39,814 nt of DNA from Providencia sneebia DSM 19967 (GTDB taxonomy: Bacteria; Pseudomonadota; Gammaproteobacteria; Enterobacterales; Enterobacteriaceae), in NCBI RefSeq assembly GCF_000314895.2, contig NZ_CM001773.1:2988210-3028023 (forward strand). The letters run 5' to 3'. The notes below the pieces were generated by a model that was given only the letters and a program-made list of their open reading frames with translations, made no database searches and was not told the DNA's origin. Of the stretch, positions 9,639 through 23,089 are shown piece by piece. A program made the position numbers and the translations under genes. Within the stretch, counting starts at the first letter, position 1; each line of letters begins with the position of its first letter.

Positions 9639-9672
9639 AATTAATGCCAATATCTTAATATCGACATTAATT
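9639..9672 (-). repeat. Dyad downstream of the relic fimH (left copy)
   Basis: AATTAATG and CATTAATT bracket a partly paired centre. The same element with one or two changes lies at 13789-13822, at the same distance from the stop of the intact fimH. It probably served as the fim operon 3' hairpin and marks the left end of the duplicated segment. Confidence 0.5.
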
Positions 9673-9706
9673 TCTAAGAAAATAGACAGTTAAGTCTTGT
9701 TATCAA

Positions 9707-10841
9707 TTAATCATAGGTAAAAGTCACACCAATCACGGACTGCACTTTTCCAGCGGTAACTTGCCCTTTTGTTCGGGCATAACGTGCACTCAAGTCCAAA
9801 TTTATAGCTGAAGTTCCCACTTTTCCTAATTGTACATTTTGATTTGCTGAAATAGGGTTTCCATTGCGAACGAGCGGGATCCCGACACCTTTTGCAGCAT
9901 TAACGCCAGAAAACATATTTGCAAATATTGAAGTGCTGGTATCCGTTGTACCTGTCAGGTAATAAGAGATGTTTTGACTTCTCGTGCAATAAATTGAGAG
10001 TGATAACGACGCACTTGCCTGATATTCTGGCAAGTTAACAACCACATTACGTGATGAAACACCACAACCACCAATAGGAACAACTACATTATTGTTGGCA
10101 TATAATTTCCATGTAAATGTTGCTGTAGACATATCCCCGCCACCATTAATATTAGTACCGGCTTGGTACATTACCAATGTAGCAAAATGAGTTCCTTTAT
10201 TGATAACGACACCACCCGCTGTTGAAATAGGTGTGAGATAAATCTGAGCGCTCCACGCCGTATAATTTCCTAAAGGGAAGCTTTTTTGATGAGTTGGTGA
10301 ATTTAATGGGAATGGGTAGCTTGCGCCATAATACCTTATTGACCCATTAAATTTTGCAAGTAAACCACTAAAAGCGGAACCATTAACCATATTGACCATG
10401 TCTCGACAAACGCTAGCATTATCATTTTTACAGAAGATTGATTTCGATAAATTAATAACAAATTTGCTGGTCGGTAATAAAATTTGATGCGACTGATTAT
10501 GGCTAATTGCAGTGTATTTTCATTCTGCTTCGATTTATCCATAGCCAGTATCGCTTTGACATTTAACCAAAAATGCTTTCTCTTTCTTGAGGTAATTGAT
10601 CATTCGTGGCATCAATAATTCGTAATGTATTCTCTTTTTTACCCTGCATAGAAAATAAGGGTGGAGTAATTACAAATTGGTTATCTTTCTGCCCATTAGA
10701 ATTTTCTAACCATGACTGAATGAGGAAAACCCCTTTTTCATCATTATTAGTCACCGCCAGCTGGATCTGTTTTTGTCCCGCAGGATAAATAACGCGTGTT
10801 GCCCCAAGTGAAACCGGCATATACCTGAGTCGATAAGCTTA
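9707..10841 (-). pseudogene. Chaperone-adhesin fusion scar of a second fim operon
   Basis: Reading from 10841 downwards the DNA encodes the start of a FimC-type chaperone (LGATRVIYPAGQKQIQLAVT onward) to the segment RIKFYYRPAN, then switches at about 10466 into the middle of a FimH-type adhesin (VINLSKSIFCKNDN onward) that continues to a normal adhesin C-terminus ending GVTFTYD at 9707. The usher, fimF, fimG, the last part of the chaperone, and the adhesin N-terminus are missing, so one deletion joined the two genes. The junction falls in short AT-rich similarity. The chaperone half also has a one-base loss in an A5 run (10569-10573, A6 in the intact copy) and a two-base loss near its signal peptide. 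The adhesin half is 230 codons open but lacks any start or lectin N-terminus. It is a non-functional relic of the operon at 13857-20531. Confidence 0.85.
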
Positions 10842-11548
10842 AACATCTAATAGATTATTTTTTCTTAGCTATTTTTTATAACTTACAAATGCTTTTGTCA
10901 TGTTTTTATTCTGAATATTATGTATTACTGAAGTTCATAGTCACAAGACAAATCCTTAGATTTTATTTTCTCCTCTTGCATAAATACGCTTATATTAAGT
11001 TGAAATATCCAAAATAACAGATTTACGTCTATGTCATTTTTAGTCTTAGCTACTATCTTTGCATTTATCATTACTTATGACTTGGCAGTTATGCCCTATT
11101 TTTTATCCTAATGTAATTATAGATGATGAGTTAACTTATCAATAACAAGCTGGTATTTATCCTATCTTGTCTTTCCTAAGTGGAGTATCAAAGTAATATG
11201 AATAAAGCTCAAGTTAGGGTTTTTTATAGGATATATCTTGTGATCTTCATCATTAAATCCAATCAATAGGTTTGTTCAATTTTTGTTCTCTTCACTTAAA
11301 AAATACGCAATTAACCTTGTTTAGTTATGCCTTTACCAACATTTCACACTTATTATTTTCACTATCATGAATTTAGTTCATGTTGTAATGAAATTAAGTC
11401 GCTTTCTCTTCGCCAATAGCTCTGGCATAAAATATGCAATGTTAACTTATTGACAACATAAAGACTGATAAATGAGAAAACGAGTCACTTTGGGAAATAT
11501 CAACAGTAAACCCCGTTGTCAGACCAAAAATTAGGATACAAAACCATA
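10842..11548. other. Non-coding gap upstream of mesX
   Basis: No gene is visible in these ~700 bases. The left part is where the first fim copy's fimI and fimA would have been, and no trace of them can be read. The right part holds the MetR-type palindrome (11366-11382). A TTGACA at 11450-11455 could be a -35, but no convincing -10 lies at the right distance. Confidence 0.55.
11366..11382. promoter_or_regulatory. MetR-type operator upstream of mesXD
   Basis: CATGAA-TTTAG-TTCATG is a perfect 6-bp-arm palindrome that contains the MetR consensus TGAA-N5-TTCA. MetR is the LysR-family activator of metE and related methionine genes. The site lies about 165 bases before mesX, and the downstream genes are a methionine synthase system, so motif and context agree. 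No MetJ box array was seen. Confidence 0.6.
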
Positions 11549-21787: not shown

Positions 21788-21877
21788 ACTATTGAATAAG
21801 GGAAATTTACTGAATAGCATTTCATTAAGTCCTACAAAGACATTCTTGAACATTGATCAACTAACGACGCTCTTTAA
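21788..21877 (+). pseudogene. 3' remnant of a second mesX
   Basis: The sequence follows the last ~90 bases of mesX (12437-12526) with scattered changes, including a premature stop in the former KFTEKYF segment, and keeps the 24-base spacer to the mesD relic. Everything upstream of it has been lost. Confidence 0.8.
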
Positions 21878-21901
21878 TTGAAAAATATAAGGCCATCTAT
21901 T

Positions 21902-22601
21902 ATGAAAATATTGCTACCCACTTCAACTGCTGGCAGCTTACTAAATCCTCTTGGCTGATACATCCGAAAGCACTTTTCCCGCCTTGAAGTTACAAAATGA
22001 AGAGTTAATTGAAGGAAAGCAAGATGCGCTTCGTTTGGCTTTAAAAGATTAATTACGTGCAAATATTGATATTGTCAGCGATGGCAAACAAACTCGTCAG
22101 CATTTTGTCACCACATTTATTGAGCACTTAAATGGCATTGATTTTAAAAATTACCAAATCGTGAAAATTCGCGATCGTTATAATACAAATGTACCAACAG
22201 TTGTTGGTGTTGGTGTTGGTGTTGGTGTTGGTGTTGGTGTTGGTGTTGGTGTTGGTGTTGGTGTTGGTGTTGGTGTTGGTGTTGGTGTTGGTGTTGGTGT
22301 TGGTGTTGGTGTTGGTGTTGGTGTTGGTGTTGGTGTTGGTGTTGGTGTTGGTGTTGGTGTTGCACATCAACAACCTGTTTTGTGGAAGATTGCAATATTT
22401 TCTATGACCATTATAAAAACCATGAAAAATTGGCATGGGTTATCAACCAAGAAACAAAAGAGTTAGAAGCTATCTATATTGATATTATGTAGTTTGATGA
22501 ACCTGCTTTTAATCTATTTGAAGTGAATGGTTGAGGAGTTGCTACTTAAGAAGTAAATAATTGATGCAAAAATCATTCAAAAAGAACTATTAGCAAAATA
22601 A
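21902..22601 (+). pseudogene. Decayed second copy of mesD with repeat expansion
   Basis: Begins MKILLPTSTAGSLLNPLG where mesD has MRILLPTSTAGSLPKPSW, then tracks mesD to the VPTVVGDVARQKPV segment. There GTTGGT has expanded to 26 perfect copies (22203-22358) before the reading resumes as VAHQQPV. It has in-frame stops (for example after ALKD, where mesD has LALEDQ), frameshifts, and a deletion that removes the PGPMTM region. The remaining C-terminal part jumps from near residue 195 to the last ten residues (IIQKELLAK), so the zinc-site Cys312 and Glu253 are gone. The 3' flank to about 22770 still resembles the flank of intact mesD. It cannot make an active enzyme. Confidence 0.88.
22203..22362. 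repeat. Hexanucleotide tandem repeat (GTTGGT), 26.7 copies
   Basis: GTTGGT repeats without a single mismatch from 22203 to 22358 (26 units) plus GTTG to 22362. It grew inside the former Val-Val-Gly-Asp-Val coding segment of the mesD relic. All six frames are open through it (Val-Gly, Leu-Val, Thr-Asn, Gln-His types), which creates spurious frames on both strands. Such a perfect long array is expected to vary in length between isolates by slipped-strand mispairing. Confidence 0.95.
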
Positions 22602-23089
22602 TTACATTAAATTTTAGAACAAGTTAATCCTCGATTGATTTAAATAATTATTTAAATTAACGCCAGAATATCACTGGCGCTAATCGTTTAAAACCATTCA
22701 ATTATAAATAATATTATTTATAAACTTTTTAATAACATTAGGCATGCTAAAACATATAATAATAAAAACTCCAATATTTTTTATTTATTTTAATTTATAT
22801 TGTTATAGAAAATACTATTAATATCCTTACCTATTTCATTAAAAGCCTCATCGGATACCATCATAAAATATCACTTGTATGAATATGCACAAAAAACACA
22901 CAACGACACAAGAGGTGAATAGGTTGCTTTAATTTAACATTCTGATATATATTATTAATTTACCCTATAGATTTTAAAGATAAATAGTCTCTTAAAATGG
23001 ATTTCCCTGATAAATTATAAAATTATTAATAATATTTATTATTTTTTCTTTAACCTTGATAAGTAACCAGGCTCAGTTAATTAATATAG
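22602..23089. other. Non-coding gap after the mesD relic
   Basis: To about 22770 it resembles the 3' flank of intact mesD, including a decayed version of the 13641-13676 palindrome and a small hairpin ACGCCAGAATATCACTGGCG. Beyond that it is AT-rich, with no gene visible. Confidence 0.5.

What the first reader, a model, noticed from the sequence alone, without database searches (positions are those of the whole stretch)
9639..22770. Tandem duplication of a fim + mesXD block with reciprocal decay
The order is fim relic - mesXD intact - fim intact - mesXD relic, all in matching orientations. Similarity includes flanks: a dyad after each fimH (9639-9672, 13789-13822) and the 3' flanks of both mesD copies (13584-13715 and 22602-22770). 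The simplest reading is one duplication of about 9-12 kb, after which each copy lost a different half. Type 1 fimbriae and a methionine synthase thus appear to have moved or duplicated as one unit.
Basis: partly seen in the sequence, partly recalled or inferred. Interest (0 to 1): 0.72.

Follow-up and report, generated by a model that had tools for sequence, protein, structure and literature searches.

The report
Duplicated fimbria-methionine block, oppositely decayed
A Providencia bacterium carries two head-to-tail copies of a block holding type 1 fimbria genes and a methionine-synthesis gene pair; each copy has lost a different half, a clear but conceptually familiar case of gene duplication followed by complementary loss.

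Summary
Window 9627-22768 of a Providencia genome holds two direct copies of [fim operon(-) / mesXD(+)]: fim relic, mesXD intact, fim nearly complete, mesXD relic. A single block in the same orientation exists in two other Providencia genomes (2 of 20 mesXD loci). The fimC pair and the mesD pair are each sister (99/99, 97/94), younger than the split from the relatives compared.

(2) Divergence is not uniform: dS 0.33 (mesD), 0.55 (fimC), 1.41 (fimH body), 0.35 (fimH last 90 nt); the fimH body has a separate, probably recombined, history. (3) Decay was not synchronous: mesXD copy 2 looks neutral (dN/dS 0.67), fim copy 1 was long constrained (fimC 0.08). (4) "Moved as a unit" is unproven.

Uptake of the second block from a close relative remains possible. 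Unlooked-for: the mesD relic holds a perfect 26.8-copy hexanucleotide array.

The parts
9627..9706 (-). copy 1: 3' flank of fimH with hairpin (about 9639-9670)
   Evidence: matches 13778-13856 and no other fetched locus at E 1e-5; fold z -4.6
9707..10465 (-). copy 1: fimH relic, frame open but N-terminus and signal peptide gone
   Evidence: PF09160 and PF00419; 75% aa to copy 2, no stop inside; read
10460..10845 (-). copy 1: fimC relic (chaperone N-domain piece, one frame break); fimG, F, D and the rest of fimC missing at the 10460-10465 junction
   Evidence: PF00345; 88% DNA to 18855-19243
11364..11515 (+). copy 1: mesX upstream region conserved in the genus (mostly 11364-11490)
   Evidence: 74-86% to the mesX upstream region of 20 of 20 mesXD loci
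11516..12526 (+). copy 1: mesX, intact
   Evidence: PF08908, E 4e-181
12552..13583 (+). copy 1: mesD, intact
   Evidence: PF01717, E 2e-42; 91-94% aa to 20 relatives
13584..13714 (+). copy 1: mesD 3' flank with strong hairpin (terminator-like)
   Evidence: matches 22605-22768; -20.4 kcal/mol
13715..13777 (.). 63-nt junction between the two copies
   Evidence: outside the aligned pieces; 13690-13800 matches only itself at E 1e-4 in the window and 56 loci
13778..13856 (-). copy 2: fimH 3' flank with hairpin
13857..14797 (-). copy 2: fimH; body open, start codon out of frame
14805..15317 (-). copy 2: fimG (named by position; no Pfam match)
15330..15866 (-). copy 2: fimF
   Evidence: PF00419
15876..18505 (-). 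copy 2: fimD usher, frame broken near 16.36 kb
   Evidence: PF13954, PF00577, PF13953 over two ORFs; alignment with 4 relatives
18596..19429 (-). copy 2: fimC chaperone
   Evidence: PF00345, PF02753
19359..19895 (-). copy 2: fimI
   Evidence: PF00419
19983..20531 (-). copy 2: fimA major pilin
   Evidence: PF00419
20688..20969 (-). copy 2: Cro/C1-type HTH regulator at the head of the operon
   Evidence: PF01381; a relative of it stands at the same place in most of the relatives' fim operons
21789..22604 (+). copy 2: mesX tail and mesD relic (6 stops in the aligned codons, deletions, repeat insertion)
22202..22362 (.). perfect hexanucleotide array, 26.8 copies, inside the mesD relic
22605..22768 (+). 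copy 2: mesD 3' flank, hairpin decayed
   Evidence: -5.1 kcal/mol against -20.4 in copy 1

Best explanation
A neighbour pair, a type 1 fimbrial operon (-) next to mesXD (+), sits beside mutS in this lineage and was duplicated head to tail as one block of about 10-11 kb, from the fimH 3' flank to the mesD 3' flank. mesXD of the second block was free of constraint from about the start and decayed (mesX mostly gone, mesD with stops and indels). The first fim operon kept evolving under constraint for most of the time since; later it lost fimG, F, D and most of fimC, most simply by one internal deletion of about 4.2 kb at a match of 4-6 nt, and its head (fimI, fimA, regulator) by further loss. The body of one fimH was probably replaced by recombination with another Providencia allele; the last ~90 nt and the flank kept the age of the duplication. 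The surviving fim operon is now decaying too (fimD and fimH frames broken), so the cell has one working mesXD and probably no working type 1 fimbria from this locus. Shown: structure, sister relations of fimC and mesD, dN/dS contrast, frame breaks. Inferred: duplication inside the lineage rather than uptake, fimH replacement, order and number of losses.
For: Structure. Single-copy blocks in G007 and G016. fimC pair sister 99/99 among 16 rows (14 others from 13 genomes), mesD pair sister 97/94 among 22 rows (20 other genomes). mesD dS 0.33 within the pair against 1.15 and 1.70 to G016 and G004 over the same columns. dN/dS: mesD pair 0.67 [0.44-1.07] against 0.03 between species; about 0.5 is expected if one copy is neutral from the start (inference). 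fimC pair 0.08 [0.04-0.16] against 0.05-0.06 between species. Relic-specific changes by codon position 1/2/3: mesD 38/40/14 (24 sites ambiguous), fimC 3/3/11 (21 ambiguous). fimH differences 8 of 92 in the last columns against 180 of 655 before, Fisher p 3e-5, with no such contrast of the copy 2 fimH to G011, G016, G007 or G019.
Against: fimH as a whole is not sister. fimC dS exceeds mesD dS in 95% of 1000 bootstrap draws, so even these two do not give one age cleanly. The mesD relic is a long branch of biased composition, and its first block alone gives a lower dN/dS, 0.38 [0.17-0.85]. A pair dS of 0.33-0.55 is close to a between-species value (G011-G019 fimC 0.58). No genome with one block at this site was seen, and the block is not beside mutS in any of the 23 relatives.
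Confidence: 0.72

Rival explanations
1. The second block is a xenologue: a homologous fim-mesXD block from an unsampled, closely related Providencia was taken up and joined in tandem to the resident one, after which redundant halves were lost.
For: Pair dS (0.33 mesD, 0.55 fimC) is close to that between two species of the clade (G011-G019 fimC 0.58). The fimH bodies are as different as between species.
Against: The flank after fimH is shared by the two copies only, among 56 loci. Head-to-tail order with a 63-nt junction is what a tandem duplication gives. The mesD and fimC pairs are closer to each other than to any relative compared (20 genomes for mesD, 13 for fimC), save that over all mesD relic columns the intact copy is nearer G016 (85%) than its decayed twin (78%).
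Confidence: 0.2
2. An older duplication, before the clade split, whose fimC and mesXD parts were later evened out by gene conversion while fimH was not.
For: fimH body dS 1.41 is of between-species size while fimC and mesD are younger; the fimH 3' end looks evened out.
Against: None of the other 23 genomes shows a second close mesX or mesD match at E 0.001. It needs at least two conversion tracts where one replacement of fimH suffices.
Confidence: 0.06
3. No block event: fim copies and mesXD copies arrived separately at the variable site beside mutS.
For: The 5' side of mutS is variable in the genus, with an integrase-family gene beside mutS in 5 of 23 relatives (the G018 one checked, PF00589).
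Against: Matching order and orientation, shared flanks, and the same fim-mesXD neighbourhood in G007 and G016.
Confidence: 0.02

Closest known systems
Type 1 (fim) chaperone-usher fimbrial operon
   Same: Order regulator-A-I-C-D-F-G-H, PapD/usher/FimH mannose-binding domains
   Different: Two copies, one a fimH-fimC relic, the other with fimD and fimH frame breaks
MesD/MesX oxygen-dependent, folate-independent methionine synthase (Price et al. 2021, PMC7857596; 12 of 35 passages seen)
   Same: Adjacent mesX (PF08908) and mesD; intact pair in copy 1
   Different: Second pair is a relic; linkage to a fimbrial operon is not mentioned in the passages seen
Gain, duplication and loss of fimbrial gene clusters as described for Salmonella (PMC3373541; 12 of 24 passages seen)
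   Same: Fimbrial clusters are gained, lost and to a lesser extent duplicated; some are pseudogenes; adhesin genes recombine
   Different: Here an unrelated metabolic gene pair is inside the duplicated block and decays in the opposite copy
Reciprocal (complementary) gene loss after tandem duplication (general concept, recalled)
   Same: Each copy loses a different part so that about one full set remains
   Different: Two unrelated modules, lost at different times; the kept fim is itself failing

Membership tests
Tandem segmental duplication | Head-to-tail copies in the same order and orientation | tested here: met
Tandem segmental duplication | Homology includes non-coding ends of the unit | tested here: met
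   fimH 3' flank and mesD 3' flank
Tandem segmental duplication | Uniform divergence over the unit | tested here: not met
   dS 0.33 mesD, 0.55 fimC, 1.41 fimH body, 0.35 fimH 3' end; the intervals of mesD, fimC and the fimH 3' end overlap, that of the fimH body overlaps neither fimC nor mesD. I therefore claim a tandem duplication only for the unit without the fimH body
Tandem segmental duplication | Copies are each other's closest relatives | tested here: inconclusive
   met for fimC (99/99) and mesD (97/94); fimH not sister, AU p 0.179
Reciprocal decay | Each copy has lost a different module, at least one full set remains | tested here: inconclusive
   mesXD kept in copy 1 only; fim kept in copy 2 only but with fimD and fimH frame breaks
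Type 1 fimbrial operon | FimH with mannose-binding lectin domain, chaperone, usher, pilins in one operon | tested here: met
   PF09160, PF00345, PF00577, PF00419
Type 1 fimbrial operon | Mannose-sensitive fimbriae are made | not testable with these tools
   frame breaks make it doubtful
MesXD methionine synthase | Adjacent DUF1852 (MesX) and core methionine synthase MesD | tested here: met
   91-94% aa to 20 relatives
Mobile unit fim-mesXD | The two modules share one phylogeny that departs from the species tree | tested here: inconclusive
   fim agrees with the mutS+miaE clade (100/100), mesXD placement is unresolved

The most novel reading that the evidence does not exclude
The truncated fimH of copy 1 is a silent adhesin cassette: an open reading frame without its own start that exchanges sequence with the other fimH through their closely similar 3' ends, so that FimH variants can be swapped in by gene conversion.
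Probability: 0.04. Interest if true: 0.6.

Novelty: new member of a known kind. Interest (0 to 1): 0.35.

Why it matters
It is a readable snapshot of how a bacterial genome resolves a duplication that spans two unrelated functions: the metabolic copy seems to have been free at once, the fimbrial copy was kept under selection for most of the time and lost late, and the adhesin gene shows its own mosaic history. It also shows that fim and mesXD are neighbours in three Providencia genomes (G000, G007, G016), and it cautions that similarity over a block need not be uniform when an adhesin gene lies inside it.

Tried and rejected
Rejected: chance similarity (E down to 1e-172); separate arrivals of the modules (shared flanks and order). 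Tried without result: plasmid records (10 records, each matching only mesXD or a short piece of one gene; 6 of the 10 are over 3.6 Mb, so probably chromosomes); Rfam (0 matches at gathering thresholds); tRNA scan (none); DNA matches for the spacers 10846-11363 and 21320-21788 in the 56 loci (none at E 1e-4; a 139-base match to 10904-11041 elsewhere in the own genome was not followed); mesXD traces beside the fim operons of G011 and G019 (none at E 0.01); a closer intact relative of the relic FimH (125 proteins, best other ones 77% identical). Family-wide look: 51 of 198 genomes have mesD at E 1e-60 and 23 of 198 a FimH at E 1e-40; 12 outside the genus have both: in 6 the best places share a contig, at least 0.7 Mb apart; in the other 6 they are on different contigs, so adjacency there is not excluded. 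Literature: 5 searches (listed 4 of 4, 15 of 21, 12 of 416, 12 of 91, 8 of 8) showed no report of this arrangement in the listings; three papers were seen as passages only: PMC7857596, PMC7652902, PMC3373541. Gene letters (fimI, fimG and so on) follow order and are recalled convention.

Rows dropped: G019f2 (fragment) from the fimH trees, and four distant chaperone rows (G001, G023, G010, G004m) from the fimC tree. dN/dS skips codons with gaps or stops and drops alignment columns absent from the copy taken as reference.

Full report
WHAT IS THERE. The window lies at G000:C1:2988210-3028023 of a 3.88 Mb genome. From left to right: fimH relic and fimC piece (-), mesX and mesD (+), then fimH, G, F, D, C, I, A and an HTH regulator (-), then a mesX tail and a mesD relic (+), then mutS and miaE. 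The copies align directly in five main pieces. The own-genome search finds no further copy, only a 139-base match to a spacer (40 of 61 candidates scored). A 63-nt junction (13715-13777) separates the copies; 13690-13800 matches only itself at E 1e-4.

WHAT IS BROKEN. Copy 1: the fimH frame is open but has lost its N-terminus, and is joined to a fimC piece at 10460-10465, where the two alignments overlap by 6 nt (identical in 6 of 6 on the fimH side and 5 of 6 on the fimC side, read). In copy 2 coordinates the missing part is 14620-18854, about 4.2 kb. No trace of fimI, fimA or the regulator was found. Copy 2: only the last part of mesX remains, and mesD has 6 stops in aligned codons and several indels.

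RELATIVES. mesXD is present in 21 of 24 genus genomes, absent from G011, G019 and G021; a second, partial copy was seen only in G000. A close FimH (E <= 1e-40) is found in 14 of 24; 12 of 24 have both; fim and mesXD are neighbours in 3 of these 12: G000, G007 and G016. In G007 and G016 the block is single, with the same order and orientation (20 mesXD loci of 20 kb each examined), 10.7 and 11.1 kb between its outer gene ends. The neighbourhoods of fim in G007 and G016 share genes with a set that is also beside fim in G011 and G017; the PTS gene of that set (PF02378) has only 34% matches in G000.

AGE AND HISTORY. fimC pair: sister, 99/99; mesD pair: sister, 97/94; fimH pair: not sister in the best tree, though holding them together is not rejected (p-AU 0.179; 0.075 without the last 92 columns). 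dS with bootstrap interval: mesD 0.33 [0.22-0.48], fimC 0.55 [0.34-0.88], fimH codons 1-220 1.41 [1.00-2.65], fimH last 30 codons 0.35 [0.09-0.89]. Over the same columns the intact mesD is 1.15 and 1.70 from G016 and G004. So the block pair is younger than the split from the relatives compared (20 genomes for mesD, 13 for fimC; G021 has neither), and only the fimH body stands out. Plain identity over all mesD relic columns runs the other way for the intact copy (85% to G016, 78% to its twin), because the relic has changed so much; the relic itself is nearest to its twin. The fimH excess is concentrated before the last 92 columns (8 of 92 against 180 of 655 differences, p 3e-5), with no such contrast between the copy 2 fimH and four relatives. 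I read this as recombination that replaced the fimH body of one copy; diversifying selection by itself does not easily explain the high synonymous distance. This is an inference: the tree test does not reject a sister relation.

ORDER OF DECAY. If one of two copies is neutral from the start, dN/dS of the pair should be near 0.5 (inference). The mesD pair has 0.67 [0.44-1.07] (its first block alone 0.38 [0.17-0.85]) against 0.03 between species: consistent with loss of constraint at or soon after duplication. The fimC pair has 0.08 [0.04-0.16], like the 0.05-0.06 between species: both fim operons were under constraint for most of the time since. fimH is intermediate, 0.14 [0.09-0.20] against 0.07. 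Relic-specific changes by codon position 1/2/3 agree: mesD 38/40/14, fimC 3/3/11, fimH 19/16/25; sites that could not be assigned were 24, 21 and 83. Limits: fimC rests on 127 codons, mesD on 180 with alignment gaps.

DID THEY MOVE AS ONE UNIT? The fim tree puts G000 with G011 and G019 (100/100), in line with mutS+miaE, whose clade is G000, G004, G018, G011, G019, G021 (SH-aLRT 100, quick tree). For mesXD, grouping G000 with G004 and G018 has p-AU 0.039, and grouping it with G016, G007 or both has 0.31, 0.16 and 0.10 (four tests); the free tree puts G000 beside a nine-genome group with 80/87. So co-duplication is well supported, but joint transfer is not. The site itself, 5' of mutS, is variable in the genus, with an integrase-family gene beside mutS in 5 of 23 relatives (the G018 member is PF00589).

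COMPARISON WITH THE KNOWN. MesD needs MesX and oxygen and does not need methyl-folate (PMC7857596, passages). The Providencia comparison PMC7652902 reports group-specific fimbriae; its main text holds no occurrence of 'duplication' or 'methionine synthase' (passages). Salmonella fimbrial clusters changed mainly by deletion and acquisition, and to a lesser extent by duplication and divergence (PMC3373541, passages). The present case is a new instance of this kind, with an unrelated metabolic pair inside the block.

VERDICT. Real, largely as described, ordinary in mechanism, with corrections: the second fim is itself failing, fimH has a different history, the losses were not simultaneous, and joint movement is not shown.

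Noticed in passing
22202-22362: Perfect hexanucleotide array, 26.8 copies of TGTTGG, inside the mesD relic; all 23 overlapping hits of a 24-base pattern of it in the own genome lie in this one place. A microsatellite apparently born in a dead gene, likely length-variable between strains.
   Followed up: partly
27692-32529: Rearrangement breakpoint just after miaE: the sigma-factor gene (rpoS by position; sigma-70 domains) that follows miaE in 23 of 23 relatives' mutS loci is about 354 kb away in this genome, and the cation-efflux gene 30873-31802, about 376-441 kb from mutS in 4 of 5 relatives searched and over 2 Mb away along the contig in G018, lies here.
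   Followed up: partly
23933-23991: Conserved block of up to 59 nt 5' of mutS, found in 12 of 23 relatives' mutS loci (in some only 30 nt; 13 of 23) and twice, 7.5 kb apart, in G003 (L195), like an attachment-site repeat.
   Followed up: partly
3537-8996: Two related amino-acid permease genes, each split into two ORFs, flank an Orn/Lys/Arg decarboxylase that is only 38-41% identical to its best match in 7 of 7 relatives searched.
   Followed up: partly
L189:4740-5635: G019 carries a second fim relic: the first 32 residues of fimA lie directly beside a broken fimH, in addition to a fuller operon on another contig; internal loss in fim operons thus recurs in the clade.
   Followed up: partly
33828-36073: IS66-type element near the right end of the window: transposase (PF03050), an IS66 Orf2-like gene (PF05717) and a third small ORF without Pfam match.
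   Followed up: no
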